A stretch of 64,000 nt of DNA from Nymphaea colorata (taxonomy: Eukaryota; Streptophyta; Magnoliopsida; Nymphaeales; Nymphaeaceae), in assembly GCF_008831285.2 (NCBI RefSeq), contig NC_045140.1, forward strand, positions 25,004,131 through 25,068,130, read 5' to 3'. A program made the position numbers and the translations under genes. Below are positions 902 through 57,100 of this stretch, in pieces (position 1 is the first letter of the stretch; each line of letters opens with the position of its first letter). Under the pieces are notes generated by a model. The model saw nothing but the letters and a program-made list of their open reading frames with translations. It was not told where the DNA came from and did not search any database.

Positions 902-2271
902 TTAGTTTGTAGACAAAGCGGCCAGCTTGGCTTTCAAATCTTTCCTTAGAATCTTCCCCGACGGAGCCTTCGGGATCGTCTGTAGAAAGAAAACCTTGTG
1001 TATCTTTTTGTAGAACACCACCTGCCATGACGCACAAACAAACAAGCGGCTCCATTAGCACACACATTTAGCAAATTTTTTTATGGTTCTATTTGTTCTT
1101 TGATTATTGGCATGCTTCTCTAACCTGTTTGGCGACAAAAGCCTTGAGATCATCCTCGAAGACGTCGGAGCCGTGGGATTTGACGACGAATGCCACCGGA
1201 ATCTCTCCTGCTAGCTCGTCCTCCATCCTGCGGAAAAAGAAAAAGGGGTTAACAGATTTCTGACCAAGGCATGACGTCTACTAGGTCATGCCCAAATTTC
1301 AATATAAAAGCGCCAAAGAGGTCGGGGTGGTGCATGCATCATCGTTGGCATAGGAGGCATGGAGGGGCAAATAAATACTCACGGGACGACGGCGGCATCG
1401 ACGACGGCAGGGTGGGTGAGAAGAAGGGCTTCCAGCTCGGCAGGGGCCACCTGAAAGCCTTTGTACTTGATCAGCTCCTTGAGACGGTCGACTATGAAGA
1501 GCTCCTCATCTTCATCCACGTATCCGATGTCTCCGCTGTGCAGCCACCCGTCCTTGTCTATCGTCCTTGCCGTCGCCTCCTCGTCATTCAGATAACCTTT
1601 CAAAGTTCAAACCCAGTCAAACATCAAGAAAATGAGCTCAACAATAGACCATATATATATATATATAAATTGACTGGTAACTCCCTTCTTTTAAAATCAT
1701 CTTATCACTTAAGCTGAACTGAACTGGTCAATTTAAAAGAAAAACAGCAAAAAAAAGTGATAGACATTTTAATGATTTAATATTAATTCATGTTTTGTTT
1801 TCTCTCTAAATGACCTTTGGTTAGATAACTAGATTACTTTGAAAATGACCATGTACACAGTTCCATGCTTGTTCATGATTGACAAACTGAAATTCCATAA
1901 CTTTGTATGATGATTTCATAAACATAAAAGAAGCTATAAATTAAACAATTGATTCTTGTGAGAGTACTCGTTTAAGAGACCGGAGGAGGAGGATGTGTCC
2001 ATGTCACTTAACTTTCATGGTCATCAATGAAGTTTATGGGAACCAAGACAATCGAGATGTGGGGCATCCCTTCCTTCTTTTCAACATAATTGAAGGTCTG
2101 ATCTAGCCGCGTTAGGCAAATTCATTGTTCCACTGTATTTAGGATTACTATTTTATATGAGCCCTTTTAGAGGGAAAAGGTTAAAAAAAATTGCTGTCCG
2201 GTCAGCTTGTCCACCGTTCATGTACCAATTCAGATCATGAATCTAGAATCCGAGGTGCTATATATATACAC

Positions 2272-2323
<52 letters not shown>

Positions 2324-4074
2324 TGAGGGTGGTAGTTCACCTTTCATGATTTGGGCACCTCTAATGCAGATCTCACCGGCCTGATTGTGAGGAAGAGAGG
2401 CCCCTGTCTCTGGGTCTACAATCTTCATCTCTGCGTTCCTTATCACAGTCCCACAGGATCCTGATTTCACCTCCATCGGCTCCTTTGCAAAGGCCAAGCA
2501 CATCGAAAGTGCGCCTGCTTCTGTCATCCCATATCCCTGCACATCTTCCTCTGAATTAGTCACTTTCATCTCTCTCTTTTAATATATATATATAAAAGAA
2601 AATTTGGCATTTTTGTTGACAAACTGCTTTACCAATAAAAAGCATCTAACGACTAAGATGGAGCGAGAACCACCTTCTCGCATAAATTTTTGGGTAGGTA
2701 AGGAAAACATTCCGTTTTCCCTTTCTTTAATATGGGGATTTAGACTAAGAGTCAGGACAGTCTACCCAACTCAACAAGCTGGAGATCAGGCTGCAGAATT
2801 TTGTGAGAACATCAAAAATATTAGTTACTGAGCTAAAAGTATATAATATTTCTTGAAAATGATATTTTCTACTCCATGGTTTCTTAACATGATACTATCA
2901 AATAGAGCCAATGGAAAATGCATTCATCGAGTTTTTCATAAATAGTTTAGGTCGTTGTTAATAAAACTTCATGCGTGATTCGCGGACCCACCTGACCGAG
3001 GGCGGCGTTGGGGATCCTGGCTCGGAGGGCGTCCTCGAGCTTCTTCCCCATGGGCGCGGCGCCGGAGACGACCCTCCGGATGGACGACAGGTCGTAGCGG
3101 TCGACGTCCGGATTCTTCACCAGAGTCAGCACGATGGGCGGCACGATCGGCGCCACCGTCACCCGGTGCCTCTGCACCAGCTCCATCAGCTTCCCTACCT
3201 CGAACTTCTTCATCACCAGGACGGTCGCCCCCGACCTGATCGCTCCGAGCAGCACCGACGTCAGCGCGTAGATGTGGAACATCGGCAGCACGCATAGCAC
3301 CACGTCCCCCTCCCTCAGGTGCATGTTGGGGTTCTCCCCGTCGACGTGCTGCGCCACGCTCGTCACGAGCCCCCGGTGCGTCAGCATCACCCCCTTGGGC
3401 AGCCCCATCGTCCCCGACGAGTACGGCAGCGCCACCACATCCTCCGGCAGCACCTCCACCTCCGGCATCTCCCTCTCGTCCGCCTCCGTCAGGCACGAAA
3501 CGTGCAGGCACCCCTCCGGGTACCCCTCGTCCACGCACACCACCTTCACCCCATCCTTCTCCCGCAGCTCCCTCACCTTCTCCGCGTGCACCGCCAGCGT
3601 CACCACCAGCCGCGCCTTGCTCGCCCTCGCCTGCCTCCCGATCTCCTCCGCGGTGTAAAACGGGTTGGCCGTCGTCGTGGTCGCGCCGCGGTAGCTCGCG
3701 CCCAGAAACACGAACGCGAACTCCGGCGAGTTGGGCAGCAGGATCATCACCACATCGCGCTGCCGAACGCCGAGCTTCGCCAGCCCGGCCGCCACACGGC
3801 GGGCGTTAAGCTCGACTTCGGCGTAGGTGTAGACGTCCCCGGTGCTCCCGTCGATGATGCAGGCCTTGTCCCTCACGGCATCCAGATTCTGGAAGCAGTA
3901 GGCGTGGAGAGGTAGGTGGTTCGGTATGTCTATGTCTGGAAGCTTGGACCGGAAAATGAACTCCTGAGTCTGAGAATCCCCCATTTTAATGGTGGTGGCT
4001 GCGGCGGTGCTGGTGGTGGCGGCGATGGCGGCAGGCATACTGGCTTTCTTTTGCGTTCCTTTTTTGGTGGTCAA
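902..4074 (-). CDS. 4CL: 4-coumarate:CoA ligase (4CL), complete, 5 exons
   Basis: It activates hydroxycinnamates to CoA thioesters with ATP, the branch point to lignin and flavonoids; the enzyme is cytosolic. Exons, in transcription order: 4074-2992, 2536-2341, 1596-1383, 1227-1125, 1021-902. They join in frame to 571 codons plus stop, counted from the first ATG. All introns are GT-AG. Family motifs: AMP-binding box I at residues 219-228 ([10 protein letters not shown]), GYGMTEAG at 362-369, box II GEICIRG at 415-421, and the C-terminal catalytic Lys region [10 protein letters not shown]. Oddities: box I has Met where Thr is usual (residue 223); the pocket segment reads AGALSM instead of AGPVLSM, one codon short; and a lone upstream TATA box suggests translation starts at Met13 (4038) or Met31 (3984), where similarity to the family begins. 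Exon 1 is strikingly GC-rich against AT-rich surroundings. Family assignment is certain; substrate range is inferred. Confidence 0.95.
2279..2319. repeat. (TA)n microsatellite in 4CL intron 2
   Basis: An uninterrupted AT dinucleotide run sits about 20 bases past the exon 2 donor on the minus strand. It creates spurious Tyr-Ile open frames on both strands. Confidence 0.95.
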
Positions 4075-4090
4075 GTGGGTGGGGTTGCAG

Positions 4091-4097
4091 ATATATA
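4091..4097 (-). promoter_or_regulatory. TATA box of the 4CL gene
   Basis: The minus strand reads TATATAT. Transcription would normally start about 30 bases downstream, near 4067, which is past the ATG at 4074. The box therefore argues for a start at Met13 or Met31. Farther upstream the minus strand has ACCAAC at 4153-4148, one base short of the AC-II element (ACCAACC) typical of phenylpropanoid promoters. Confidence 0.6.
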
Positions 4098-5118
4098 AGG
4101 ATTGGCATTTGAGTGCGCAGTGAGGAATGGAAATGAGAGGTAATGGAGTTGGTGGGGGTCAGAAGGAGAGAGTGGTTGACAGAACTGAGAAAAACGACGA
4201 CGAAGTCGTGGGGAACGGGGATGACGTAGTGCCCAGCATACGCACATGGGGTCCAATATTATACGTTTTTATCCACCTTCTTATATAGAAAAAACATATT
4301 CATATTTGCTAATGCTGTTTTAGAAATAAATTCTGTAATTTCGACCATCCAAACATAGAGATACTTTTGATAACGTGGATTCAAAATTTCGGATAGTTTA
4401 GCATGCAAAGCAACTTTGTAAATGCTTGTTAAATTTGTTTAAAAAATTAAAATAGGTTTATGAAACAATAGTTGAATTTAACCAATGTTTAATAAAGATT
4501 TTTGAAACACTCACCCGCAAAATGTCTCTGCTGTCAATAATACAGGTTGAATTGATGGCGTGTGAATTATGATGAATTTATTGAACCAAATGCTGAGCTG
4601 CGCATTTAAAGACAACAAATACGCTAAAAACAGAGTATGTGTGTCTTTTGGTCTAAAGAGTCCACCGCTCGTTCGAAAGATGAGGTGGAAAACACAAATT
4701 GTTGTTTCAAGTAAAGAGCTTGGTGGCGGCCGAGACTGAAATGGATGGTCGCCATTTGTCTCACCAGTCGTCATTTGAGACTTTACTTTCGATTTAGCAT
4801 CAAACTTGGCTCGACCTGATCGTGCTCGGAGTCTGCTGGCTGCCGACAATGGATATGGACACTTTGAGTCGCCTTCAATTAATTGGTTGGTGCACAGAGG
4901 GTTACATGCTCGGCCCGAGCATAAATCAGCCACCCTAATAACTCAAGACTGCTAAAAGAGGAACATCCTTCTAAATTCGAAGGGGTAGATACTTAAGTTC
5001 CGTTTAAAACGAGTGAACAGCAGAGCCAGACGTACCAACCCCATCACTGTACAAATTCAGAAAGTAGAAGGAAAAAAAAAAAACAGTTCAACATTTGTTT
5101 TTGTAAAAAAAAATTGTT

Positions 5119-5383
5119 TTAGGAGTTAGTTTGGATGACACTTCAAAATTAGATTTTGCTGTGAAAACCTGATTTTGTTTTTGAACTGGATTTGATAAAA
5201 GAGAACTGAATTTGATAAAAGAGAGCAAAAAAACTCACATCCCCGCAATTTATTCACAAAAATCCAATTTAGAAGTGTTACCCAGACAAACAAACCAAGT
5301 TTTTGAAACCCATTAAACTTGGCTTTTATAAAACTTTGCATAAGAACTGACTTAGATGAGGTTGTCATCCAAACGCTCCCTTA
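5119..5383. mobile_element. Tourist-like MITE with TTA target duplication
   Basis: The ends are inverted: the left end contains GTTTGGATGACA and the right end TGTCATCCAAAC, each preceded by a GGA/GGG cap. TTA flanks both sides (5119-5121 and 5381-5383). A TTA duplication with a GGG-type terminus is the hallmark of PIF/Harbinger-derived Tourist MITEs. The 259-bp interior is AT-rich and non-coding. Confidence 0.7.
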
Positions 5384-5484
5384 AACAACTTGAAGAATAT
5401 ATTCTCGGAGTCGGGTACATGTCTAATGGTCAAATTGACCTCTGCAACGATCACAGAAGAAATCCACAGCTCACCAAACAAAAC

Positions 5485-5536
5485 TCGAAATCCAAACTTG
5501 TGATCCTCATTCGAAATCCAAACTTGTGATCCTCAT
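5485..5536. repeat. Exact 26-bp tandem duplication
   Basis: The 26-bp unit beginning TCGAAATCCAAACTTG occurs twice head to tail without a mismatch. It is a recent local slippage or repair event with no coding context. Confidence 0.85.
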
Positions 5537-5539
5537 TGA

Positions 5540-8500
5540 TCTTAAGTTCACAAATATCTTATCCTTCCATTGATCTATATATATTTTTAGTTTTTCACCG
5601 GTTTGTGCTGACAATAGTTATGGATTTCAAGATAATGAAAAACACAAGAAAATTTCATACCTTCCCTTTCCATTTAAAAAATATTTTTCCGATAAGTTTT
5701 GGCCGCCCGCCGGCATGACCTAACTGAACCTAATTTGAGCACCTGACCTAATAGGCGACCAGCTTAATTTGATTTGTCGGAAATAACGTCACAAACAAAG
5801 ACTATAATAAGTTTGTGTGATATATTATATAATCATTTAAGTCCCTATTAGAAAGTTTCCGCCTGCAACAGTACTCAACGTACTCGCTGTCCCCACCGTT
5901 GCTGGTTTCATTTGAAATCTATTTATTAGTCAGATGTGACGACGAAATCCATCTCTGATCAGATTATTAATTGGTATAGGATTAAATCGGCATACAGTTT
6001 CATACCGAAACTTGGAATTAGATATGTGTCTGAGATATGATAAACAAATTATGTGGATTACATATCATATGGCAGTAAGTCTGCGTTCAATCAAGTTTCT
6101 CCACATGCCTTATTTTATACATCAAGATTGCTTGTGGAAGTCACCCATGCATGCTACAGACTTTGAACTAATTTGGTGCCTTTGTTAGCCTGTGAGGCGC
6201 TCTCTCCATTAGTTTAATACCTTTCCAGCAAGCATTGGATGTACAATACTAGTATGTTTTTATAGTTTATTAAGAGAAAATTGAAATAAGCTGGCTAGTT
6301 ATGTGGCCAGATGGGTATTTTTTATTTCGTATAATTAAAAACCATGGTAAAAGATGCATTTTATTGCTAAAAACTTTGGCCAAACAATTAGCTGTTGCAA
6401 ATGCACATTTTACAATAATATTTAATAACATAAAATAAAAAATAATCATCCACCTTAGAAATAGCCAGCTCGACCCCGTTTATTAAATGTTTATTAGTCA
6501 ATAATTGTCTATGCGTATCTTCAATTATTGTGGCCATTTCTGTTTTTTTGTGAAGACGATGCAGAATGACCAGCTCGTTTTAGAGGTTGATGTGTGGGCC
6601 TATTAAGATCCACTAGAGAAACATGGAACCAAGAGCATTAGGTGTGTTTTGAAAGGATCTCAATAGCATGGATTTTAAATCTATGGTACATGTTAAAAAC
6701 CATGAATCTAAAGTCGAATGGAAGGAGGTCTAACCTAAAATTCATGAATTTAAGATTTTAGGAATTTCATATGAGTGAAGATCTCATACAATTAAGTAAA
6801 TATTTTAAACTTCAACGAAACGTCTGTGATATGACTTGGTAGTGACGTTTATTCCCGAGCAAAATTCATGTCGGATGTACTTATGCAGGACTAAATGTTT
6901 AGTAATTTTTTTCTTTTTTACTGGTATGAACTTATGGATTGATTTTGGCTCTTAAGAAGTTCTGAAAAATATGGGGCGATCAGGATAAGCATATGCTAAC
7001 AGGATAACCTTGATTTTGAGAAAAGAATCTAAAAATAATTGAAGTTTCGCCATAATGTTGCTACCACTAAGACTTTTCGAAGTTGGTCGCCTCTGTGTTG
7101 TCGTTCTCTGCACACAAATGAGCAACAACATAAAAGAGCGAAGTTGTTGAATGAAGACGACACTTTTGAGATCATTCAACATCGTGTGGCGTAAGACTCA
7201 TCTTACCTACCGTCCGTTTAATCATTGTTGTTGCAGGACGTGAATCTCTCGGCCGTCCGGATGGTCCTGCCTTTAACACTCACCCAGCTCGCCGGAGCAT
7301 CTGGATGGCCGGAGAATTTCAACTGTCTTGTTATCGTTGTTGTGATTCTTGTTTCGTATGTGTTTATTCAATTTTGAACTTTCCGCTTATTCATTAGATA
7401 TATTTTTAAAGATATTATGAAAAAATAACCTGAAAAGGCCCCATCCACCAACTTTTTATGAGACAAAAGCAGCCGCCCCTACCCCGCCGGTAAGTATTAG
7501 CACTAAAGTCCAAGTTTTTAGCGTTATTCAAGAATTAGTACGCCTAACTTTATCTTGTGCAAAGGGTGTCAGTGTCAATCACCTATGGTGAAAAATGAAC
7601 CACGAGGTGAACCGACGTTTATACTTCCAATCAACTTACCGCCATTTGATGCTGATTAATTATACTTTGAACTAACCAATCATTGTTAATTATCGGTTGC
7701 TTTGTTTTCAGCATTTTTAACAAATAGCTTTCATTTTCTTAAAATTTTTTTCGTCATCTTTATTAGTCTTTAAACATCAATTAAAAAAAAATCAAGCTTC
7801 AGTAATTAAATAATTTGATTAGCGATTTGGACACGATTCCGTTGGGGGCGAATTCCTTGACTCCATTTCTAAAAAGAAGAATACAAACTGGATTACATCA
7901 ACCAGGGTAGCGTAGCGTGGACGTATTTCCAACATGACAGACAAAAAACGTCATTTCTGCGGCTTTCTGTCTTCTAGAAGACCACAAACTGGGAATGAGA
8001 CGGCTACAGGTGGAGCCAGGGCGTCCCCATGAGCTACGCCGTTAGGTCCAACGTAGTTTATGAGAATCAGCCAATTATTCAAATTCTGTGGCCGGCTCTT
8101 GGTACTAAACCGTCAAAATGTCAACTATATAGGTGCATATATCCAATAAATGTTGCCAATTTATAATATCTTTTATTTTGAGACATTCTCCTCAGTAGCA
8201 TGAATTTGAAAAACATTTGCTTTGCTACGCGTCACAAGCAAAACATCCATGATTAGCTAAAACCATGTACTTTTGATGCTTGCTTATTTAGCTTTTGTTT
8301 TTAGTGAGGGAGTGGTATTAATCTCATTGTTTGAAAAAGGCTCGAAGGCCCCCTAATTCTCTTTGTTTTTGGGGTTTTAAGCTGTGTCGGTGTCACTGAT
8401 AGCAACGGTGTATCCTTCAACTTGGATGTCGCGTCCTACCACCTTGAGATACGAGAACATAGCGGTCATAAGAATCTCATTGTCTTTATACAGATCCTTA

Positions 8501-9280
8501 ACCCGACTAGCTATGCTGCTCTAAAACTTTGGACAATGTTTTTTATCTTTTATATAAGTTACACGAATTGGAGTGGCATCTTTTGTCAATGTGTGATATA
8601 TATATATATATATATATACCACTCCAATTCGGTATAACTGAGGCAGATTGCATGTATTTTTATGGCCATTGGTGAGAGCAACATCACATGGATGAAAGGC
8701 CAATTAATTGAGATTGCAAAACAAATTCTGCATCCCAATGGATTTGAAGATTGGGGATATGCAATTTCAGTTCATACAGCCTGCAGAACCTTACTTTCAA
8801 GTTCTTTTAACACCAGAAACTGACCTCTCAAGTTGACCATCTCTACTTCGAGGCATTGATTGATAAAGAATTTGATCACCCACAACCTGGTTTGAAAATT
8901 TTAATAAAGAATTTTAAAATATTAGTAACATATAGTATGTCGAATATTCCGCTCAAATTTGATCACCCCATCTGATCTCATAGACCATGCTTTAGAATAG
9001 AATTGTCAAGAAAAATCCTATTTTAGCGTGTCACCTTCACAAACAACCAGTTTTGATGTTTGAGCTTTGCATCAAGTTAGGTGCAAAAGTTTATTGAACC
9101 AGGATTCTAATTTGGTTTTACTATTACCCAAGTGAATCATAACTTTAACTGAAGATAGAAATGCAATTCGCCTTCACTTGTGATACAACAACATTCTACT
9201 TCCAATCTAAGGCTAGTGTCACCACCACAAGGAGCTGGTTAGAAACATAACCCCAACTGATTTGACCATCTTTCCTAAAT
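5540..9280. other. Intergenic, no gene recognised
   Basis: AT-rich DNA with only short, domain-free open frames. A (TA)n run at about 8598-8619 is flanked by matching arms (CCACTCCAATTCG versus CGAATTGGAGTGG), giving a small foldback at 8563-8633. No promoter or RNA gene was recognised. Confidence 0.5.
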
Positions 9281-9289
9281 AAAAATCCA

Positions 9290-9770
9290 GGCTGACTCAA
9301 AGCTCAACAAGGTTGGGCTCGGTCTACCCTAAAGCTCTTGCTGGCAGCTCAAGCTCACTTAGTTTATTTATTGGGTTGAGCTTGACCATCAACTTTATGC
9401 CCGTCAGTCAGCTACTAGGTTTGATATTTATCTTAGGTTTGATGTTTATCTTTGCTTGAAACCTTTAAATTTCATTTTTTAATATATCAAAAACACTTAG
9501 TAATGTTTTCAGAGTTTTTAAGATAGTCATTGGCAATACACTAAAAGTTTATAAAGGAGCTATTGGCTACGTGTATATATATATATATATATAGAAAGAG
9601 AGAGAGAGAGAGAATTAAAAATCTCTTATAAACAAGTTTTAATATATATATCGGGTCGAGTTGGGCCTCCAATACCTTACTCGGACCAGGTTGGCCCAGT
9701 AGATTTCTCTTATCGAACTTACTCAAATGTCAAATAACCAGTACAAGACCGACCCATTGGTGCGGTACCC
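9290..9770. repeat. Dispersed GGGTTGGGC-type repeat, degenerate
   Basis: The segment is rich in GGGCTC, GGTTGAGCTTGAC and GGGTCGAGTTGGGCC motifs around an AT-rich centre with a (TA)n/(GA)n microsatellite (9575-9613). The same motif set recurs at 49480-49820. The ends could not be defined and no target duplication was seen. Confidence 0.4.
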
Positions 9771-10183
9771 AACTATCTATCGACTACCTAGCCGGTTGTC
9801 TTCCTTACGCACAGGACTTTAGTTAAATGCCTTAGTAATCAAAGCAATTTCTGAGGACCCCGGGCCCCAGCGTCACAACAGGTCGCCATCGCTACGAGCC
9901 ACAGAGAGAGAGTAAGGACTCTGGGTTTGTAAACGGATCCATGTGATTGTTTAACACACCCTAATGGTTTCCGGTACGAGGTGAGACCGGGTCGTGTCCG
10001 ACCCGGTGATTGCCCTAACGAATACTGAGTTCAGTTCCAGGGTGACAACACACGGGCCGTTGCTTGACCCTTATTAAACCCGTTCCCGGTACTCTTCAGC
10101 TCTGTTTTTCCCGCCCAATCTATCTACACCTCCAAGGGATCGAGTTTTTCCTCCCTTCCTGTCTCTCTCGGATTCCATCCCTA

Positions 10184-13100
10184 ATGGCGGAATCGGAAAT
10201 GCTGATCGACGAGCCTCCGGAAACCATCCCGTTCCAACTCCAGTTCGACAATCCGGTGGCCTCGGAGGTGCTCCCTCTCTTTCTTTCTCTTCTCCTATCA
10301 AGAGTCTTTCTGTTGATCCTTTCGGGATCAAGATTCAGAAAAATGTAATCGGTGATATCGATTTTTCCTCGTTTGTGATCTTGAAGATCAAGCTAGCCGA
10401 ATGGAATCCCGAGAAGGACCTGCTTGCGATGGTCACCGAGGAGTCCAAGATTGTTCTGCATCGTTTCAATTGGCAGAGGCTTTGGATCACTTCTTTAGGT
10501 ATATCTTTCTCCTTTTCCGGACGCAATCTAGGGTTAGGGTTTTCGTATGTCGTTGTCTAACCGAAATCAAATCGGTTGAAAGCAGATATATATAGTTGTT
10601 CTGTTGAGCCATAAGTGCATGAAAGTTGCGATCAATTACACGAAATCGGCCTCTTCATTCCTGTCCTTAAGATGGCGAGGCCAATTCATCTTCGTTCAAA
10701 TGGAGGGGAAGTCCACTTCTTTGGCCATGCCTCCTCCTTTGAGGACGATACTGATACAAAAAGGAAGAAAGAGACGATGTGATTGTTCTTTAAATCTTGT
10801 GGTTTATTTATTCAATCGCCTGAAAATGGTATGGAATTAAATTCAGAAGCATATTTAACATGCAAGAATATAAATGCACAAAAATGGGGTATATTTTATT
10901 TTATCATGAAAAAAGGGTTATATCACGCATTACAGTGTATTCCTGAGGATCTTGTGGCTACCACTCTGATTAGTCTACCGACAGGGTAAAATAAAAATTG
11001 AAGCAGTATTTGTCATCTTTCGTGATATCACGCTGACGTAACCATCGTAATCTACAGGGAAACCTATTACAGCGATATGTTGGCGTCCTGATGGTAAAGT
11101 GCTAGCTATTGGCCTTGAAGATGGATCGGTTTCACTGCATGATGTTGAAGTGGGTGTCTTGAGACTACTTTGCTTTCTTGTGGGCTTCATGCATATGCTT
11201 TTGTAGTTCGTCAACGTTAGAATGTATTTTCGCCTGTCTATTATACTGTCAATAGCAGCTATGCAGTTTGTTGCTTTTCAAATCTTGGACAGTGACAGAC
11301 TGAAGCTTAGTTTGCTTGCATCCGTTCATTATACACTTTTTGATCTATTGGTATGTTTATTGTCGATTCTGTCTGAGAAACTGTATTATATATTAAACTT
11401 TACTTACACCTAAACTGCAGAGTGGGAAGGTGTTGAAGCAGGTTAAATTACACATAGCAGCAATTGTCTGTCTCAAGTGGGAAGTCGAGGATCAAACGGG
11501 AGAGTCTGTAGGGGTATAAATCCATCTAGTTAAGCGTTTTAAACTGATTATTTCTTTTGCTTATAACTTGATTGACATCTGTCTACCTGTTCTTGCTGGT
11601 TAATGGTCTTTGCCACCACTTGCATGAAATACACTTTTATGTATGACATATGACGACTGACTTTTGTAAGTATAAATTGTGAGACAAATGAGCTTCTTCA
11701 TTTGTGATATTCCTTTTACACTTTTGGTATTCTGTTCTGGAGTCTGGATTATGATCAGGATGTTTGACAAAAAATGGGCATGTTATGTGTCTGCCGATTT
11801 TCAATTATTTAAATGCGTGGTTAAGCTGTTGTCAAAGTTACATGCTAATTGAGAAACCAAATTTGGAAAAGTTCACTTGTTTGCTAGTTGTCATGTCCTG
11901 TTTGGACATGCAAGTGCTAAGACAGCTGCTACAACTCGTGGAGTCTCCATCATCTTTCTGTTTTTTTCTCCATTTCTATTAATTCCAAAACACCCTGACC
12001 TTATACATATAGCATCATGAGGCAAAAGCTTTTTAAATTTGTATTAAATTTAATTTCTATATTCATATATTGCTAATGTAACAGTAGCATCTTCTGTTGG
12101 TTTATCTTGGTATGGTTTCCAGAGAACAAATGCATATTGTTTGATACTTTCTATTAGCTTCTTAATTGACTAGACAGTTGATGGCATTTAAAAGGTCAAA
12201 GTCAAACATCAGATGCATGATGAACCAGACATAGAACTACGGCAGGATCAACTTTTTTTTTGGTTTTAATTGATCATGATAAGGGAAATATGGTAGATTT
12301 GTGATTCACCTAATGCTTCTTCTCAGTTGCTTAAGATAGTTACATGGCCCATATTTGAAGGTTCATCTCATCAGTTCATTTCATAGATGGCTGTTTCAAG
12401 ACTTGGCAGATGGGAAAATGGGACATTCAACTTTTATGCAACGAAGTTTGTCAATTTTTTGATCTTGAGTTGCCTAGCTGGAGGATATGGACTGGGCTCA
12501 GGTTACTTGTACCACCATCACAAATATCGTGAGATTATAAAAAATCTCGCGATATTTACAAGAAAAACAGGTAACATAAAAGAAAACAGCAAAATGTCAC
12601 GAAATTTTGAAAATCTTGCCAAAAATGAAAATCTCACGATTTTTCCTGAGATTTTGGGATTTTCTACTTTTTAACGATTTTTTAAGCTTTTTATACAAAT
12701 TTTTTTAAATTCTGTTGAGATTTTCCTGAGAAGAATAACTTCGCTGAAAAATTACACAAGCAAAACATTGCCGATATCTTCCCAAGGATGATATTTGTGA
12801 CAATGACATGTACCTCAATTACCACACCCAATTAATGGAAGTCCAGAATTGGATTAGGGCTTGGATGAAAAAGCTGTTACTTAGGTAATTGTCTTGTTTG
12901 GATATATATGTTGGAACATGATATTTGCTGAATTTAGATGGAATATCCTAAACCATGTAAAACCGTTATCAACTCATTTCTGTCTGGCAGTGGTGGATAT
13001 ATCCAGTTGACTAGTATCCTGTATCTAGTACTTTCTAGCTGTTAGGAGTTAGGATCAATATGCTACCCTATCCAACTCTTTAAATCCTGAACAGATGGTA

Positions 13101-33345: not shown

Positions 33346-33876
33346 AAATGGAAGGGTAGTGGAAACTCGACCTCTCATTCAAACCCCTGTCGCAACTGCA
33401 TATGAGCGATTCGTTTTATTATGAAGGACATTGAAAGGTGAAGCATGATTAACAAAAAGACACAATTCACTGTGTATGACATGCCTAATCCGATGGACAA
33501 TCCGGTGACAGTAATCAACCAATACAAAAGCACCCAAAGAAGCAAATAGGATCAAGGAAACGCATGATTGTACAGAGCCATATAGCAGGAAAAAGGGTCA
33601 AACCATCAAAGATGATAACCAGATTCAAACAATGGAAAAGATGAACTCTAAAATTTTCGAACCATGCTGAAACAACGGAAAGGATCTTCTCAAAAACGTT
33701 CAAGCCAAGGCGCAAAAGGCTTCCCAAGCCACATGACTAAATCAACAAGATGAAAAACAAAAGCGCTAGAGTATTGATCTTACGCACCGGAGCAGGCAAG
33801 TGGCAGGAGCAGGCCAGTGTGAGGGAGACGACGAGGACGAACGTGAGCGAGCAGCGGCTGCGGCTGGAAGGAAGAG

Positions 33877-34230
33877 GCAGAACACGAGCGAGCGGCTGGG
33901 TGAGGAACTCGTGGCAGGAAGAAAGGGGCAGAACGTGAGCGAGCAGCGGCTGCAGCTGGGTGAGGAACTCGCTGCAGGAAGGAAGAGGCAGAACACGAGC
34001 AAGCGGCTGGGTGAGGAACTCGCAGCAGGAAGAAAGGGGCAGAACGTGAGCGAGCAGCGGCTGTAGCTGGGTGAGGAGCTCGCGGCAGGAAGGAAGAGGC
34101 AGAACGTGAGCGAGCGGCTGGGTGAGGAACTCGCGGCAGGAAGGAAGAGGCAGAACGCGAGCGAGCAGCGGCTGTGGTTGGGTGAGGAACTCGCGGCAGG
34201 AAGGAAGAGGCAGAACGCGAGCGAGCGAGC
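33877..34230. repeat. GC-rich minisatellite, alternating 51- and 60-bp units
   Basis: The anchor GCAGAAC recurs at 33877, 33928, 33988, 34039, 34099, 34150 and 34210, so spacings alternate 51, 60, 51, 60, 51, 60. The higher-order unit is 111 bp, three times over. Because all units are multiples of three with few stops, long open frames appear on both strands; these are repeat artefacts rather than genes. Confidence 0.9.
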
Positions 34231-34426
34231 CCTAACGGGCCAAAAGAAAATTCCGGAAATATGTTTCCACCCCTGCCGGTGGAAACATATTTCCGGAAAT
34301 ATGTTTTCGGAATCGACCTGAACGGTCGAAAAAATATTTCCACGTTTGTTACGCTGGAAATATTTTGAAAACCAGAAAAATGTTTCTGGTTCCACAAGGA
34401 AATTTCCGTCCGTCAAAAGGTTCCCC

Positions 34427-36670
34427 GTTGTTTTCACTGAATAGAATTTGATAGTCTACCCAATCTTTTTGCTTCAATCTTTTTGCTTCCATATTTTTCC
34501 GTTGAAGCACTAAACAAGTTCTCTTTAAAGATGTCAAATGTGCGTTGAACATACCGAACGCCATCCTTCCCATGGTTGTACCATATACGAGTGACATGTT
34601 CACAGATCCTCTGGATTCCATGCCTAATCGGTAGTGAGACACGTAAAGCACAGCACAACCTAAGTCTATGTCGGACAATAATCGGAGACCATCAGACCAA
34701 CCTCTATTTCTGCGTGCACAATCAACCCTCTCTCGCGCTTTTGGTGCAGGGGCACCAACACATTGGTAGTTCCAATTTAAGCATCAGAAGTGTAGTCTCT
34801 AATTGTATTTTGAGCTGATGGTTCTATCATGAATCAACGTGTTAAACATTGGGCGATTTCTCTATGGGCTCGCCTACCTGCGAAAGCAAAAATATGAAAA
34901 AAATGATTACTAAACAGATGGAGGAATGAATAAGTTTATCTTGTGGTTTCATGAAGGATACAGAGAGATCCTTTTAATTATCGTAATTTTTCCTCCTACT
35001 TAGATTTTAAAGTTTTACTAACTGTTGGCTGGTGTATGGTGACGGTGTTTATGCGAGTTGAATTGACGGTACAATGAATAATTGGTCAGGCTTTCGAATC
35101 AATTCTCCGTCTGGTTTCAATAGAACTGAATCCCTGACAAACTCTTACCAAGGTTATCCGCCAGTAATTGGACTTGGATTGGATTGGTCATGTATCGGAT
35201 CTGAACCTAAATTTTCACCTGAGGTTAAGAATGTGTCATGAAGGTGTTTGGGTTGGTTCTTGGTTGTGTGCCAATCGCTTTTTTCAAAGGGATAGTGTCG
35301 AAGATCACGGTCAATGCGGGGTAAGTGAATGCATTCTCTATCAATATGGGGCCCTCCTGGATCTCAATTCGTTTGGATGGCTTTCAAGAGATGGTCAGAG
35401 GAGGCTTATCCGTTTGAATTTATTGCTTGTATCAATCGTTCGTTTAATATCTCTAATGCCGTTATGACCTATATGGTAGAATAATATTTGGCTTTAGTGG
35501 ACAGCGGCGTGCTGACGAGCATCATTGTGGTCAATTGACCTTCTATACCGAAACTTGACTTGCAATTAAGTGAGGACTGAGATGCCATGTGTCCTCGTTG
35601 ACTTGACGTGAACCCTTGTCCATTTCCGTGGCTCGTTGTTACATTTATTGAGTCAAGATCACATTCAGATTCGTTAAATTGACTACAGATGAAAGATGTG
35701 CATTTCTATGGCAGAATGACACTATTGTGAAGTGTTGCTTGATATATCTTTCTTTCCCCTGTATATTAGTCAGTTCTTTTGTTTTATGTTTTTACCCAGA
35801 GATACGGAAGACTTAATTGAGTGTAGGACTACATGTTTAATTAGACGCTGCAAGTCTGTTTACTACGGCTTCCTGCTGGAAAACTTTGCTTTATTCATGG
35901 TGTATAAGTTATTCAGATCACCATGAATGTGGACAAAGAATTTAGTTATGGTCCTTAATGCTACTTGCCCTTGCCTGCTTCAACTCTTCAATGTTCCTAT
36001 TCTCCTTTGGCTTAATTTTCACTTGGCATCAAGTAAACATTCTTTCGTTGCATGGAGTTATCATACACAGGGCCAAGAAATCTTTGGCCAGAGACTGAGA
36101 TTTTTCACTTCAGCACTGAAATTCCCTAAGTGGATGCCGTCCTGCTCATTAGTCATTCTCGATGTTAACTTGTCACACTACATGTCTATCTTTGTACATG
36201 CATTGTGGCCTCAAATCTGCGACTTGAATGCTCTCTTCATGTTAAACAGAAGAAAATCATTTAATTACAAGGTACATTTTTATAAACGGAGGACAGTAAC
36301 TGCCTCTATTTTTCTCACCCAGCTCCGATACTGCCCGTGATGTCTTTCATTAATGCCGCTATCTTATTAAACCATTCACTTCCTCGGTACTCGAAGCTTA
36401 TGGTGCCATTTAATTTCAAATTTTGGACATCACATTTTTTCATTCGTTAGTGTCCTAGATATCCTTTAAAGCAAATATCATATATGGACATCGGTAACTA
36501 TGAAGTTGTAACATGCCACCTTTATATGTAAAGCATCCTTTTTCCCTATTATTCGTCATATCGTGGCAACGTGAGGTAGGCTCATGAATCAGGAACTGCT
36601 TTGGTGATGTGTGCGTACAAGCGGGCGAGTGGATCTGGAGATTGTTTGACTTGGCTCAAGTACTCTCTTC
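34427..36670. other. Intergenic, no gene recognised
   Basis: Several short open frames occur on both strands (for example minus-strand frames at 34434-34678 and plus-strand frames at 35168-35467 and 35927-36340). None shows a domain I recognise and none has supporting splice structure. The region may include remote remains of the NLR locus that follows. Confidence 0.4.
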
Positions 36671-39180: not shown

Positions 39181-41875
39181 TCATCCTTTGACGGCAATGG
39201 GCCGCTTGCAAGGGTACAACCTGAAAACGTTGTAGGCCGATATACAAGAAACCACGGCTAAGAGGAAGGAGGCTGCCAACCCAAAGAGGAGAGCAGCAGC
39301 CACTTTGTCGCAGAACCTGGTGTAGATGTTGCAGAGTTTCATCCACTGGAACTGTGTCTGTCCTGACACCGCAAAGTAACAGCCCTGGGTTGCAGCAGTA
39401 GTCACAGAAAACGTAGCATATGCCATCACCTTCAAGCAAGTGATCAAAAAGAAGATGGTGAGCGCCGAGTCAATGCACAAGATTTCAATTATAAAAGTAG
39501 GAGAAAGGCTGTAGAAGTCAAGGCACTTGGATACACAACATTGATGCAGATAATGACACGGTCTACGCTTCAATTGACATCATAAATATGATTAAAATCA
39601 CATACCATTATCTGGAATGGCTATTTGCTAATTGATTTGGAAGCTAAGGTCAACTCTGAACCGGATTTAGTGAGTGGAATTGGATGTTATATAAACACAG
39701 GGCGGGCCTTCTCCAGAACAACTTCAGAAAAAATGTGCAATCGATCAAATTTTTAGGCTCATATGTTGTAATTGAATTCTTCCATCTAAGACCCTTGCTC
39801 TGTGGGATAACTTGCAGAGAGAGAGCAGATAATTTGTGACTGTTCCTGTAAAAAGGTGAAGTGTCTCTCTACAGAGGGGCCGCTTACAATTTATGGAATT
39901 GGAAGACCTAAACCAGTCTGCATTCAGTACTTTTCGTTGCAGTAACTTCTGACCATCTATGGACACCAAAAAGATGGTGGGTTAATGCAGGCCGGCACTT
40001 GCACAGATTTAATTAATGGCTTCAACTTTGTGACCAATCTTTCAGCCATGTGGTCCTATCGATTAGCACCCACCCATGTAGCTCATTGCCACCTCCACCC
40101 ATGAGATTGACGTGGCTGAAAACTGTGGATTACTCATAGCGCCATATTATTAGATACGTCCATATCCTAGACGCCCTCCATTGCAGTTTCTTAATCAGAT
40201 AAGGAAGTAATTGGAAATGAAAGTGAATTTATGGCCATCCGTATGTCTATATATCAATTTCCCGGTGAAAAGTTGAGGACATGTACAGTTTGGGATGAGG
40301 GTCCCCTGCTCGGCCACTAAAGTGATAAAATACTGCAATAGATTGTTTTCGTTCTTCCTTATACATGTACTACTAAATTACAAACACGCAAAAGATGAAA
40401 GAGGTTAAAATACTGATGGAGGTGCTCTTTAATCTTTTATGTTTTGCAAGTTTAGTTTTATTGATGTCATAATAATTAAATTAAAGAGTTAACATAGAAA
40501 AAGATCGTTGCTAATCAATTACCTGGTCCATGGAGAAGCTAATCCACGCCAAACCCTTGCTAGGCCTGGACTTAAGGCTGGTCTTACTGCGTGCGAGTAG
40601 GCAGGCTTTGCATAACTGTGCCAAAAGATACCCCGTAGCTATGGAATGTGTGACCAGCAAGACCCTGCAAATGAAAAAGGTGAATAGGGCAATTAATTAA
40701 GGCTCTTGATTAGGTAACTGGTTTTCATCAGTGTTTGAAAGTTAAAATGTCGCTCTTCAGTTAGTTGTGAAGTTATTTCAAGCAAAATAGCAGGAGCGCG
40801 TATATATAACACCAGGTCTTTGTAGAAACTGCAGCACTAAGAATGTCTTACACAGCCATTTCCATGGTTGGCGTTGACGTGCAGCAGAGAAGTATTATGG
40901 TAAAGCATCTGCTCAAATCAGGGGCAGAAGAGTTTTGCCAGGAGCATATTAATAGAAAGCGTTTTGGGCCTCCAAGGGTTCTATGAACGTTGCTTTGTAG
41001 GAGAGCTTTAGGCCTCTAAATTGCAGCAGTTAAATCCGTCATCGGAAAAAAGACCTCTCATGCAATGTTTTTTTTTTTTAAAAAAAAATTGAAACATGTA
41101 AAAGAACCTGGCTTATATATATACTCTTCTCAACCAACAAGAAGACAAAAAGAACCTTACAGAAACATCCTTTTCGATCAACGTATATGTGACGGAATGA
41201 TCTAATGCGCGCTTTTGAAATTGGAAAATACCCATCCACGCCACCAGATTCTTATGATAAAGAAAATGTGCCCCACTTTCTGCAATAGTACTGCTACTCT
41301 AGCGGATAACAGTGTAACAAGATCATACAAAGTGGCCTTAGCTTTAAAGGCTGCCTATATCCTGAATCTTCACAAGATCAAGCATTTGGATACCCATAAG
41401 GACTCTAATGCCTAGCTAGGTCTGCTTAAATCCTCCAAGTTAAAGAAAACTAGGAACCTACTGAAAACGTCCAACTTAAAGGTGAATAAGAGTCGACATA
41501 TCGCAGAATCTGCGAAATTTTTTCTCAGGGGGAGGGAACGATGCGCGGAGCTTTACATGGAGAGGCTACCTAAACAGACTCCTCAAGCGGCAAGTTCAGC
41601 ACGTTCAGAAAACTTGGGTTTTTTCTGATCTCTTCACTGAAAAGAAAAGGGAGATGAAACCTCTATCTCATTCTAAAAACACGAAGAATGTTAATGTAGG
41701 AAGCAGAATCATACACCAAAGCTTGCAGTGAATGGACATTCGCAGTCTCTTTGATAACGCCGAAGACCATCTCTGTTTCCTTGGTTGTGCCAATCAAGAC
41801 AGCGGTTGCCATTGTTAACACAATTGCAAGGAACCTAAGGGCAGCCTCAGCCTTCACCAATCTGCTGTACTCCAT
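39181..41875 (-). CDS. CASP-like membrane protein (CASPL2-type), complete, 3 exons
   Basis: CASP-like proteins are four-helix plasma-membrane proteins of the MARVEL-related family; CASPs themselves organise Casparian strips, and most CASPLs have less defined roles in membrane domains and walls. Exons in transcription order: 41875-41715, 40664-40523, 39429-39181. They join in frame to 183 residues. Likely helices: 11-29 (ALRFLAIVLTMATAVLIG), 55-76, 95-121 and 144-168. The conserved Arg of helix 1 (R14) and Asp of helix 3 (D100, in MDQ) are present, as is the loop QWMKLCNIYTRFC (129-141). Intron 1 could use either of two overlapping donors; GTATGA keeps the frame and was chosen. The subgroup rests on loop and C-terminal similarity to CASPL2 proteins remembered from other plants. 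Confidence 0.9.
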
Positions 41876-51141: not shown

Positions 51142-54100
51142 ATGGATACAGAGGATTCGTCGATCACCAACCAAGTTTTTCGTGAGTATATCATGATCCA
51201 AGCTGCATGCATGTGCATCTATGGATGACAATCTTTGAACTTTTTTCTGTTTTCTTCCCTTTTTGTTTGAAGTGAGCACTCTTGGTTTATTTTCTTTGGC
51301 TGCAATGTATAGCAATGGAGGCATTCAATCATGGTGCATGGTGGGGAGCAAGGAGCGTCAGAATCCAAGAAGGAAGGGTTATTGTGGATTTTGATAATCA
51401 AAACCTTTGCAGTCAGGAAACGTCCCTTGATAAGCTCAGGTGGAGGTCAAGGAAAGCAACGCCATCCGACTGTGGCTATTTCTTAAAACCTGGGGTAGAA
51501 GTTGCTGTATTATCATCATCTCCCAGTGCCATTTCCAAGGGAGACCACAACTTGGTATCTTCTATTTCTTTTCCCTTTTTCAAAATGTCAGGTGATGTCC
51601 TCTGTTGAAAGAAATCATGCACTATACGTTAACTGTAAATCCCTATACGATGTCCCTCAATCATGGAAATGCTGCACTTACATTGCTGCAATACGCTGCT
51701 GTGGCTCAACTAACATGAGAAATCCTGAAATTGCAATTTTGGCCCGTATTCTTTTGCATTCTATGCCAGAAAATGGCCAACCTTTGGGCTTTCTCTGCAC
51801 ATTATGCTATTACCGACCTATGCTGACTAATACAGGGTGGAGAAGATTCTGCTTCTTGCTTCGGAGACAATAAGGTGTCCAGCAAGTTCAAAAGTGCTTC
51901 TTGATCAGGCCAAGTAATAACTCAGGGGTCCTCCGTTTATTTCATAATGGTGAATTAGTTGTAGAGATTACATCCATTGAAGGCCTTTCTTCGCAAAAAC
52001 TCCACGGCAACCAAAATTTCTCCCCAGGATAAAATTCTGGTTTTCTCGGTGTACAGGACTCCAGACGGCCTGCTTGTCCTGCAAATTATTACCATGTATC
52101 CTGCCAGAATTTCTTATGATCTCAAAACCTGTGCGTTAATATGTTCAATTTTCCCACTTTCTGAATGTAGATTTGCATAATAATAAATAGTTAGGTGTCA
52201 AATTTGATCTGCTGTTTTCTAGGTTGTGGTCAGAGAGAACACCCTTGTACAGTTGTACCTTTAAATTTCTATTCTCTGCTTTTCTGCATGTCCTTTGAAA
52301 TACCCGAAGATATTTCTGATAAAAAGTGTTGAGTGTGGATCTTATTTACATTCCACTCTTGCTACTCTTCAAAAGTATAAATCCTTGTTTTCACGTGGTC
52401 TCCAAAAGCAAATATTGGTTTCATTTGGGAGCCTTAGGGTCGCAACTAACAATAAATAACGGAGAGGTGTTCCAGTTGCTTGTGCAGTCTATCCAGCATG
52501 TCGTAAGTGCTAAGCTTAATTCCATGGCAACAACAGAACAATTTTCATGAAATACTATGCTGTGGGCCAATGGTAATACAGAAGCAGGAACGGGATGACA
52601 AGTATAAACAACCAGGAACATTCTAATGGTGGAAAAAGGTTACAGCATGTGATGAAAGAAACTTGAGAAGGCATGATCATACGTAAGCTTATAAACAACC
52701 AAAAGCATTCTAATGCTGAAGAATTTCCCAATTGAGAATATAATGCAAAGTGTTGATTTTAGATTATGTTAAAGTTGTGCTTTGCGAACTTCAGTTATTC
52801 TCTCGGATTTAAACAAGTATTTGACTGTTGTTTCCAATTTATTGCTTGCATCCATAAATGTATCCTACTTCTCTCAATTTTCAATAATGTAAGTGGGTTT
52901 TTTCTTGTAGGCATTGCGTGATGCTAAAATTATTTGTGTAAAGAGAGAGCCACATCAAGATCAATGCACATGCAGTTACTTTGTGAATTTCCGTAAAACT
53001 CAAGATCGACCTACAAGGCATGGTGTATATGCAAGAAATAAAGTAATGCAATCAGTCAGTGATTTTTTTATACTGCAAAAATTGCGTACAAGACCATGTA
53101 AAGTGGAAAGGTTGCAAAGAGAGCATTTTGAAGATTGTCATTCACTGTGTATCAGTAAACTGACAAGTGGAAATTGGCGAGCTGAGATTTCATGGTTAGT
53201 TGTAATTTCTATTCTGAGAGGTCTAGATTTTGATCTGAAGCTTAAAAAAAACAAAACAATATATGTGATATCAAACAAATTTAAGGGCTCATATGATGGT
53301 AGGAGTGTAATGGCTATTAGTTTCGAATGGTGTAGTGGGATTCTGAAACCGAAATTTGAGCCATTTGATGAAGATGCATTGGCAATGGCAATCATTCCAG
53401 TGGATGTCGACTCTGTTGATAAGGGAGAGAGATATGTATCACATTATAATGTTATTGGCCCAAGACGATCTCAGCGCCAACGGAAATGCCCAGACCGCTT
53501 TGTGAGCTATGGTTTTGAGTCTGTTTATGATAATCAGAAACATGAAGAAGCCGGTTGCTTGAATGAAGAAGAAGAAGAAGAAGCCGAAGAAGAAACTCTT
53601 CATCAAATTCTTGGCCGTCTGTATATTAAGAATAGGAACAAGAGAAAGCATACAGATTGTGTTGTTTTTGAAGATGACGGAGGGGGAAAAAGTTTCTACC
53701 AAAGTAAGTTAAGTAACAGAAACCTGGAAGCAATACCTCAAATTCTTGAGGGAGGAATATGTGTAGAAGTCTCTTTTCCAGAAGAAAATACTCACATGAC
53801 TAATAATAAGTTGGTCAGTTTCTCTAACTTCATGGAGTTGAAACAGTCTGAAGGTCAAACTATGGTGCCAGAACATCTTCTGATCTGTGACATTGGGTCT
53901 ACTCATAATATTGACCATAGAATATCTTGCTACCTAAATGAGAACAAACTGCCTGCTGAAGCTGATGAGTACATTATCAAGGAAAACTGGAAACGAAGAA
54001 GACACATACATAATGATGTTTTTATGGGTAGAGATCTTAAGCAACATAATGAAGATGACCATGCTTCTGTACCTGACAGCTTCACATCCATGATGGAGAA

Positions 54101-57100
54101 TTTCCCAGGTATACTTATAATTCATTTATAATTTTTCTTGCAAGTTGTCATGCAATACGTCAGTTTCATCTTTGGGTTTCTGTAAGTAGATGTAGAAAAA
54201 AAAACTGTAAATTCCTGCAGCAGCTGCCAAGCAACTGAAAGCATAAAATGTACTTTGAAAAAGATATTTTGATGATCCACACAGCAGAGTACTCTATTAC
54301 TTTTAATTTTAGGACATCTAATTTTAGAAAAATGGCATGCCATAGGTTATTTTCCTGCATGAGCCCTGATGTAATCCAAGGGAAAGTCAGAGCTGGAACA
54401 AAATCAGAGTGTTCCTCTGTTTGAAATCTATTTAGGTATAAGACAGAGACAGTAAGTGAGGCACTTTATAAAAAAGTCGCAGAAATGCAGCATTTTGCGA
54501 AAGTCACAAGATGAGCTGTAATATCTTGTCCTTGCTTTTGGATTTCAGGTTCTAAAAATGCTCATAACCAGAAGGTCATAGAAGCTGCATCCGAGGACCA
54601 CAACTTCTACAAGATCCCAAAGCATCAGAAAAAAACAAAATCAACCAAAGAAGGAAAAGTAAATGTGAAGTTTTCACACAGGTCACAAATCCAAGGTGGA
54701 AAAAGTTCTAGCCCAAAGCTTTCAGACGGCAAATCACAGACTGTTCAAGGAAAAATTACATATGTTGGTGCAGCCAACAGTTCCTCTATGAAGAAACAAG
54801 GAAAGCCATACACGTCACATGGAAGACAAGCATATAGTTCTATAGTTAGAAATAATTATTTCAATAAAGGAATGTCCAAAAATCTTTTTCACTTGCAGTG
54901 CAATAAACGATTAGAAGTGCTTCGGCAGGTCATTGACTGTGAGCAAAGAATGCTGCCACTGCCTGTTAGTGCTCGGTGGGAAATGATGAAAAGATCAAAG
55001 CAAAGAAATGTTTCCATAAATGTTCTCCAGTGGTCTCCACCCACTGAAGTTGAGAACACCGACTCTGACCTTGATAGTTTGTGGGAAGAGTTGGAACATA
55101 TCTCATTACATGTTCCACACTCTCCAATCAATGAGGTAAAATAATTCATCCTTGTTTTGGTTTGCTATTTATGAATGCACATGGACAACCTAAAGTTGAT
55201 TGACTATGCGATACTTTTTAGCTTTTACTGCATTGAATTACATGATACAACCATGACTGTCCCATATTGCAGCAATGTACCTTTGTTATTTAAGCTGAAT
55301 CTCTTCAATGACCAAGAGGATTAGTTGTCTTATTTTTCTTGTTCTCTTTTCTTATTTCGTTGTTCTGAATAATGCAGCTGAGATCTGTTTTACTTCTTCT
55401 CTGCATTTTGTCACAAATTTGGCTAGCACAAAGTCATGAATGGATTCTTGTTATTTGTGAACGTGTCAAACATGGCATCCTCTTGGACGCTGCTTATCAT
55501 AGGTTTGAATCAGAATGCAAATATGTTGGAGAGGAAAACATGGTATATTCTTCTGCCAATAAAACATAAAAAATTCATGCTTTGAAATAGTGGCAGAAGT
55601 TTACCTGCAGTCTCAATTCAAACAGATAAATAAATGTACGTTGCCTTTGTCAATTTATGATGTGGGTATTAAACAAGGTCAACCGATGAACTGGGATCCT
55701 CATTATATGCAGCAGGTTTTTTAAAACCTGTCTAACTGATATCAGACCCTGTCCTCAGCAGTCTCGTTATACCTTGTCTCTAAAGAGGCCAGGTAGATGT
55801 TACACCCTTGAATACAAACACACCCAAAATAGTGGATGGATTTCCCTAATTACTACTATTATATAAATGTTCCATGACATCCTTCTTCAACTTTGAAACA
55901 AAAAAAAAAAAAAAGGTTGGAGATGCATGTTAAGTATTAACAATCCAAATCAAGCCAACCCAAACTTTTTGAACGAAATTTCAGATGTCACTTTGGGCTG
56001 TTAATGGGCCTTCATTCATCAAACTCGGTACCTTTTAATTTTGCAACAATGGCAACAGGACAACTTGAACTAGGATGAACAATATAGACACCAAATTGAT
56101 TATTGAAGTAGCTTCCTGTCTTCTTTTTGTTCTTTTTTTCTTGGAATCTTTCATTTCACAGCGTTCCTATTCCAGGAGTCAGGCACAGAATTCTTGGATA
56201 TTGTAAGGGAGGGTTCAATACCAAGTTGTGAACACAAATATGTTCTGGATGAAGAAATTGGGATCATATGTGAACATTGCAAGTTTGTAAAGCTGGAGAT
56301 TGGCTATACTTTGCCACCTTTTGTAAGTAACTCAATCTGAAGAAACTAACCCCTTCTAATCTTGTTCTCGATTTGATTTAAACTAAACTGCTTTAATGTC
56401 CTTTGTTGCAGAACTCTTGTTTAAATCTGAGCGAGGACTTAACTGGTAAAGAATGGAATATGAACAGGCTTTCTGAATTAGATGAAGACCTGCCCGGGAA
56501 GTTTAACTTAAGAAACATAACTAATAATTCAGCCAGATCTGAAGATGTTTGGTCCCTGATACCAGACATGAGAAGCAAGCTTCATGTCCATCAAAAGAAA
56601 GCTTTTGAGTTTATATGGAAAAATATTGCTGGATCGGTTGAGATAGGAGAGATGGATCATACATCCGGCAGGGCAGGTGGTTGTATAATCTCACACTCTC
56701 CCGGGACTGGGAAGACACTTCTTGTTATAGCGTTTCTTAAAAGCTACCTCAGTTTGTTTCCAGGGAACAGGCCCCTAGTATTAGTTCCAAAGGTTACACT
56801 CTATACTTGGACAAGGGAGTTTGAGAAATGGGATATGTCAGTTCCCGTATATGAACTCTATGCAACCCGTGATTATCAGGTTATGAAATCCAGGAAAGGT
56901 GAAGCATCAAATGGTTTGCTCGGTGGTCTAAAGCTGCCTGTTGGCATGAAGCGGATCATGGATTGCCTTGAGAAACTGTGCAAATGGCATGAAAGCCCGA
57001 GCATATTATTAATGAGTTACTCATGTTTTTCCTCTTTTACAAGTCCGAGAAAGTCAGACAATGATTTGACTCGAAAGATAGCAGGATTGCTATGCAGAAG

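What the first reader, a model, noticed from the sequence alone, without database searches (positions are those of the whole stretch)
2507..2536. 4CL lacks one residue in its substrate-binding pocket (AGALSM instead of AGPVLSM)
Seen: the exon 2 minus strand reads GYGMTEAG then ALSM, so the usual Pro-Val pair is replaced by a single Ala without a frameshift. Established: this Pro-Val-Leu segment lines the hydroxycinnamate pocket, and the rare sinapate-activating 4CLs (a soybean and an Arabidopsis isoform) lack one residue here. Two other pocket positions also differ from common class I enzymes: Thr for Asn in HIYALTS, and Val for Lys before SGAAP. Inference: the enzyme may accept bulkier substrates such as sinapate.
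Basis: partly seen in the sequence, partly recalled or inferred. Interest (0 to 1): 0.75.

Follow-up and report, generated by a model that had tools for sequence, protein, structure and literature searches.

The report
Water-lily 4CL with shortened substrate pocket
A water-lily gene for a key lignin and flavonoid enzyme has lost one amino acid in the wall of its substrate pocket, and its neighbouring sister gene has lost a different one in the same pocket, so the plant may activate bulkier plant acids than usual, which is untested.

Summary
A complete five-exon 4-coumarate:CoA ligase (4CL) gene on the minus strand (902-4038) reads AGALSM where comparators read AGPV(L/I)(A/S)M: one codon less, in frame. 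It is not a read error: a broken second copy about 29 kb away has the same deletion although its introns differ by 6.7%; exons differ by 1%, so the shortened protein was probably kept by selection. The genome is most likely the water lily Nymphaea colorata. Two genome searches found three intact true 4CLs: this one; its tandem sister, with a full loop but one residue missing in another pocket segment, HIYSL-S; and a canonical one on C4. The lost residue lies where tobacco 4CL2 chain 5bsw is also one residue short (its sinapate activity, and that of soybean and Arabidopsis isoforms, recalled). Differences: no Pro is left in the loop, and box I reads SGTMG, not SGTTG, replacing a Thr 93% conserved in the superfamily, which could lower activity. 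Best reading: a working 4CL with an enlarged pocket, plausibly taking 3,5-dimethoxylated acids such as sinapate; not shown.

The parts
2992..4038 (-). 4CL gene (copy A), exon 1, 349 codons; a second in-frame Met at 3982-3984 lies next to where the sister protein starts in the alignment and may be the true start
2341..2536 (-). exon 2, begins [12 protein letters not shown]
   Evidence: AG acceptor, GT donor
1383..1596 (-). exon 3
1125..1227 (-). exon 4
902..1021 (-). exon 5 with stop codon
2501..2518 (-). AGALSM: pocket loop one residue shorter than AGPVLSM
3406..3408 (-). Met 211 in box I ([10 protein letters not shown]), Thr in the five comparators
3259..3261 (-). Thr 260 in HIYALTS (Asn in four comparators, absent in the tandem sister)
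3067..3069 (-). Val 324 before SGAAP, a variable pocket position (K, K, M, M, L in the comparators)

Best explanation
Copy A is a working 4CL of a two-gene tandem group in Nymphaea colorata whose hydroxycinnamate pocket has been widened by loss of one residue from the loop that follows GYGMTE and faces the substrate ring. Shown: the in-frame deletion, the intact gene, the same deletion in a second copy, and fewer changes in exons than in introns between the copies. Inferred: with one small Ala in place of Pro-Val at Nt 340-341, and Val rather than Lys at 324, the pocket has room for a second meta-methoxy group, so the enzyme accepts 3,5-dimethoxylated acids (sinapate) and perhaps 5-hydroxyferulate, besides 4-coumarate, caffeate and ferulate. 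The tandem sister C, with a full PVI loop but a residue lost in HIYSL-S, probably has a different substrate range; the two may share the job of a single ancestral enzyme.
For: Intact gene, splice sites and checked active-site residues: H237, Y239, D420, R435, K437, K441, Q446, K526 of Nt4CL2 numbering are all kept. Same deletion in copy B, with exons 6 of 623 aligned bases different against 51 of 763 in introns, Fisher P 1.5e-8. dN/dS 0.22 between A and C. A evolves no faster than C: relative-rate tests with four outgroups, p 0.53 to 0.90. Of the three length differences between A and C inside the aligned span, two are these pocket residues and one lies in the C-terminal tail. Print names the Gly339-Leu342 segment as the bar to 3,5-disubstituted substrates. 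Best PDB score is to the one-residue-shorter Nt4CL2 chain 5bsw. Five assayed 4CLs were reported without sinapate activity in passages that I saw: Ma4CL3, Pp4CL1, Cc4CL1 and Cc4CL2, St4CL1; I did not see their loop sequences.
Against: No assay, expression data or model of this protein. No Pro is left in the loop, unlike 5bsw. Box I Thr to Met is rare and could cut activity. At the site where A has Val, Met-to-Ala abolished 4-coumarate and ferulate use in Pp4CL1, so a smaller residue there can be harmful. dN/dS of 0.22 is above the 0.089 reported for angiosperm 4CLs (other method). Part of the exon/intron contrast between A and B may come from gene conversion or from poor alignment of AT-rich introns. 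No other Nymphaeales genome was available to date the deletion.
Confidence: 0.5

Rival explanations
1. A weakened 4CL: the shortened loop and the box I Met reduce adenylation, and the gene is drifting or has a minor or non-catalytic role while copy C and the C4 gene carry the flux.
For: Met replaces a Thr found in 13 of the 14 AMP-binding loci examined in this genome, A being the exception (one search had scored 14 of 94 candidates), and 93% conserved in an alignment of 374 superfamily sequences (PMC6122825, Table 1). dN/dS of 0.22 exceeds the 0.089 reported for angiosperm 4CLs (PMC4569036), though the methods differ. A broken copy B exists.
Against: Intact frame, all checked active-site residues kept, exon conservation against B, no rate acceleration. 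For this Thr the table lists packing contacts, not phosphate contacts, in the Thermus structure, so Met may be tolerated.
Confidence: 0.25
2. A 4CL specialised for some other bulky or non-hydroxycinnamate acid, not sinapate.
For: One Ala in place of Pro-Val differs from 5bsw; N242 to T changes a second pocket segment.
Against: No candidate substrate was identified; the changed loop is the one tied to 3,5-substitution in print.
Confidence: 0.15
3. Neutral pocket change: substrate range is the ordinary one (4-coumarate, caffeate, ferulate).
For: Pocket positions of 4CL vary (site 306 is V in A and M, L, M, K, K in the five others).
Against: The loop has the same length in all five comparators and is changed only here.
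Confidence: 0.1

Closest known systems
Tobacco Nt4CL2 one-residue-shorter chain (PDB 5bsw; recalled as the engineered Val341 deletion that gains sinapate activity)
   Same: One residue missing in the same loop; best score among 177635 distinct PDB sequences for residues 19-559 of the window protein
   Different: 5bsw keeps Pro (AGPLAM) and SGTTG; the window protein has Ala (AGALSM) and SGTMG; engineered (recalled), not natural
Soybean Gm4CL1 and Arabidopsis At4CL4, natural sinapate-activating 4CLs (recalled; the Arabidopsis primary paper is not held, its title seen in reference lists)
   Same: Natural loss of one residue in the Pro-Val-Leu segment (recalled)
   Different: Recalled to keep Pro; in eudicots; separate origin likely, since the sister gene C still has the full loop
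Copy C of the same genome (C3:24978065-24980784)
   Same: Tandem sister, 80.7% identical, grouped with A at 100/100 support
   Different: Full PVI loop and SGTTG, but lacks the residue equivalent to Asn in HIYSLNS
C4 gene of the same genome (C4:22178005-22183274)
   Same: Intact 4CL, 63.1% identical
   Different: Canonical pocket (AGPVLSM, HIYSLNS), one more intron; class II by recalled features

Membership tests
4-coumarate:CoA ligase (4CL) | AMP-binding enzyme domains PF00501 and PF13193 | tested here: met
   E 2.9e-98 and 4.7e-18
4-coumarate:CoA ligase (4CL) | Box I SSGTTGLPKG exactly | tested here: not met
   [10 protein letters not shown], one residue off; so filed as a 4CL by descent with an altered box I
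4-coumarate:CoA ligase (4CL) | Box II GEICIRG | tested here: met
   exon 2
4-coumarate:CoA ligase (4CL) | Active-site residues (Nt H237, Y239, D420, R435, K437, K441, Q446, K526) | tested here: met
4-coumarate:CoA ligase (4CL) | Groups with bona fide 4CLs rather than 4CL-like proteins | tested here: met
   65.5 to 67.4% identity to Pt4CL1, At4CL1 and Nt4CL2; the six 4CLs split from two 4CL-like rows at 100/100
4-coumarate:CoA ligase (4CL) | CoA ligation of 4-coumarate | not testable with these tools
   needs recombinant enzyme
Class I (lignin-type) 4CL | Tree position with class I enzymes | tested here: inconclusive
   branching among the three class I references, A+C and the C4 gene is weakly supported
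Sinapate-activating 4CL type (Gm4CL1, At4CL4, engineered Nt4CL2) | Loss of one residue in the Pro-Val-Leu loop | tested here: met
Sinapate-activating 4CL type (Gm4CL1, At4CL4, engineered Nt4CL2) | Pro of the loop retained, as in 5bsw | tested here: not met
   AGALSM against AGPLAM
Sinapate-activating 4CL type (Gm4CL1, At4CL4, engineered Nt4CL2) | Activity on sinapate | not testable with these tools
   needs assay

The most novel reading that the evidence does not exclude
In an early-branching flowering plant, a tandem pair of 4CLs has split an ancestral substrate range by two independent one-residue losses in different segments of the same pocket (A: Pro-Val-Leu loop; C: HIYSL-N-S), leaving the C4 gene as the only 4CL found with a full-length pocket; A has independently become a sinapate-type ligase, a further natural origin of that trait.
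Probability: 0.3. Interest if true: 0.65.

Novelty: new variant of a known kind. Interest (0 to 1): 0.5.

Why it matters
If A takes sinapate, it would be a natural, independently evolved test of the 4CL substrate code far from the eudicots in which it was worked out, and would bear on whether early flowering plants could make sinapoyl-CoA directly. The pair A and C offers matched natural deletions in different segments of one pocket. It also shows a plant in which, as far as this assembly shows, two of three intact true 4CLs have a shortened pocket segment.

Tried and rejected
Sequencing or assembly error: rejected, because copy B carries the same deletion with a different base (GCG for GCA) and diverged introns. 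Pseudogene: rejected for A (intact), accepted for B (no exon 1, one-base gap in exon 3, nine-base gap in exon 5). Alternative splice acceptor restoring the residue: the changed codon is the ninth of exon 2, so no nearby acceptor choice would restore it (reading). Val at 324 as a special pocket change: rejected as distinctive. A tree with 4CL-like outgroup rows did not resolve the branching inside the 4CLs; without them A and C group at 100/100 and the rest is weaker, so class I membership of A and C is not established. NCBIfam matched 92 families; the 25 shown are acyl-CoA ligase models, all below their cut-offs. tRNA search of the window found none. Literature on water lilies: 15 of 23 papers listed for Nymphaea with 4CL and lignin, 8 of 3,550 and 12 of 1,091; in these listings and the passages read I saw nothing on A or C or on sinapate activation. 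One paper names a 4CL gene on Chr02 of Nymphaea 'Paul Stetson' with highest expression in late stamens (PMC12899119, passages); I could not link it to A, C or the C4 gene. The N. prolifera scent paper (passages) did not bear on it. First motif scripts had too narrow a pattern or missed one strand and were redone. Structure prediction was not run: the tool takes proteins that the window DNA gives letter for letter, and this one is spliced from five exons.

Full report
What is there. The window's minus strand holds a complete 4CL gene in five exons, 4038-2992, 2536-2341, 1596-1383, 1227-1125 and 1021-902, with GT-AG introns, joining to 559 residues without an internal stop. Exon 2 starts [20 protein letters not shown]. 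In an alignment with Nt4CL2, Pt4CL1 and At4CL1 (sequences taken) and two intact paralogs from the same genome, the window protein alone lacks a residue at Nt P340/V341. Most simply it is a loss of three bases plus one or more substitutions: either Val lost and Pro to Ala, or Pro lost and Val to Ala; the sequence cannot tell which.

Where it comes from. The window lies in a 407.8 Mb assembly, contig C3. A forward primer published for chromosome 3 of the water lily Nymphaea colorata (Ny-3.2, PMC9601493, part of its table seen) occurs exactly once, on C3, with its reverse primer 160 bases on. The published genome is 409 Mb in 804 scaffolds (PMC7015852, passages). I take the window as N. colorata chromosome 3; this is an inference from one primer pair and the genome size.

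The family in this genome. A search with exon 2 scored 20 of 20 candidates and gave 13 matches, four of them at 80% identity or more: A (the window gene), B, C and a gene on C4; the other nine are at 51% or less. A search with exon 1, answered only, scored 28 of 28 candidates and gave 22 matches: A (100%), C (81%), the C4 gene (60%), and the other 19 at 51% or less, the best-scoring of them at 38%. A search with PF00501, which scored 14 of 94 candidates, showed the same three. So this assembly shows three intact true 4CLs; the tool calls its counts lower bounds for large families. B (C3:24974733-24976161, + strand) has exons 2 to 5 only, with a one-base gap in exon 3 and a nine-base gap in exon 5, so it is broken; the 741 bases before its exon 2 match window 10939-11681 at 94.1%, so B looks like an inverted copy of this locus that lacks window 2537-10938. 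C (C3:24978065-24980784, - strand) is intact and 80.7% identical to A; it ends 24 kb from A. A fragment of the exon 3 region lies at about C3:24998431-24998748.

Not an artefact. B reads AGALSM too, with GCG for GCA. In A against B, exons differ at 6 of 623 aligned bases, introns at 51 of 763 and the 3' flank at 29 of 332; exon against intron Fisher P 1.5e-8. Two copies with separately diverged introns are very unlikely to share a base-calling error, and the contrast suggests that the shortened protein was under selection for much of the time since the copy was made. Caveats: gene conversion and AT-rich intron alignment could inflate the contrast. A against C gives dS 0.56, dN 0.125, ratio 0.22, above the 0.089 reported for angiosperm 4CLs with a different method (PMC4569036, Table 1, passages). 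Relative-rate tests between A and C with four outgroups give p 0.90, 0.54, 0.53 and 0.90, so A is not running faster than C.

The sister has its own pocket deletion. C has the full AGPVISM loop and SGTTG in box I, but reads HIYSLSILL where the others read HIY(A/S)L(N/T)S: the residue at Nt N242 is gone. Inside the aligned span these two are the only length differences between A and C apart from one in the C-terminal tail. Both sites belong to the twelve pocket positions of the 4CL substrate code as I recall it (Schneider and others 2003, not held). If two one-residue losses fell at random over about 535 residues, both would hit those twelve with a chance near 5 in 10,000; this is a rough, after-the-fact figure, and losses are not random. 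A and C group together at 100/100, and C keeps the loop while A keeps a residue at N242, so most simply each loss came after the two genes parted.

What the change should do. The PDB chain with the best score to the window protein, 5bsw, is Nt4CL2 with one residue fewer in this loop, AGPLAM; that it was made to accept sinapate is recalled. 4CLs reported without sinapate activity, in passages that I saw, are Ma4CL3, Pp4CL1, Cc4CL1 and Cc4CL2 and St4CL1; their loop sequences I did not see. So a wider pocket is the best reading, and sinapate the best guess at the extra substrate.

What speaks against it. No Pro is left in the loop, which 5bsw keeps. Most important, box I reads [10 protein letters not shown]. 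Of the 14 loci L015-L028, 13 have Thr there and only A has Met; Thr is 93% conserved at index 326 in an alignment of 374 adenylate-forming enzymes (PMC6122825, passages and Table 1; the matching of index 326 to Nt T193 is mine, by motif register). That table lists packing contacts for the side chain, and the part of the mutant table that I saw has none at this index. B lacks exon 1, so the age of the Met cannot be told. The Met could lower the rate, or be harmless.

Regulation. ACCAACC, recalled as an AC element of phenylpropanoid promoters, occurs 853 and 1002 bases before the first ATG of A, once 256 bases before that of C, and ACCTACC once 189 bases before that of the C4 gene; no chance expectation was computed, and with short motifs this is weak.

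Verdict. The gene is a new natural variant of a known kind. The tandem pair with two different pocket losses is the more interesting part, and an enzyme assay would settle it.

Noticed in passing
window 3406-3408: Box I of the window 4CL reads [10 protein letters not shown]; the Met replaces a Thr that is 93% conserved in the superfamily.
   Followed up: yes
G000:C3:24978065-24980784 (in L010): The tandem sister 4CL lacks the residue equivalent to Nt4CL2 Asn242 (HIYSL-SILL).
   Followed up: yes
G000:C3:24974733-24976161 (in L010): Broken inverted copy of the window 4CL without exon 1; the 741 bases before it match window 10939-11681 at 94.1%.
   Followed up: yes
window 10078-10557 (+): Frame matching the anaphase-promoting complex subunit 4 WD40 domain.
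   Followed up: no
window 56397-58358 (+): Long open frame with SNF2-related and helicase C domains, possibly a CLASSY-like chromatin remodeller (recalled); the frame at 52911-54128 may belong to the same gene.
   Followed up: partly
window 39184-39579 (-): Frame matching the Casparian strip membrane protein domain.
   Followed up: no
window 33769-34455 (-): Open frame with a repeated motif (CLFLPAASSSPS), no Pfam match; probably a tandem DNA repeat.
   Followed up: no
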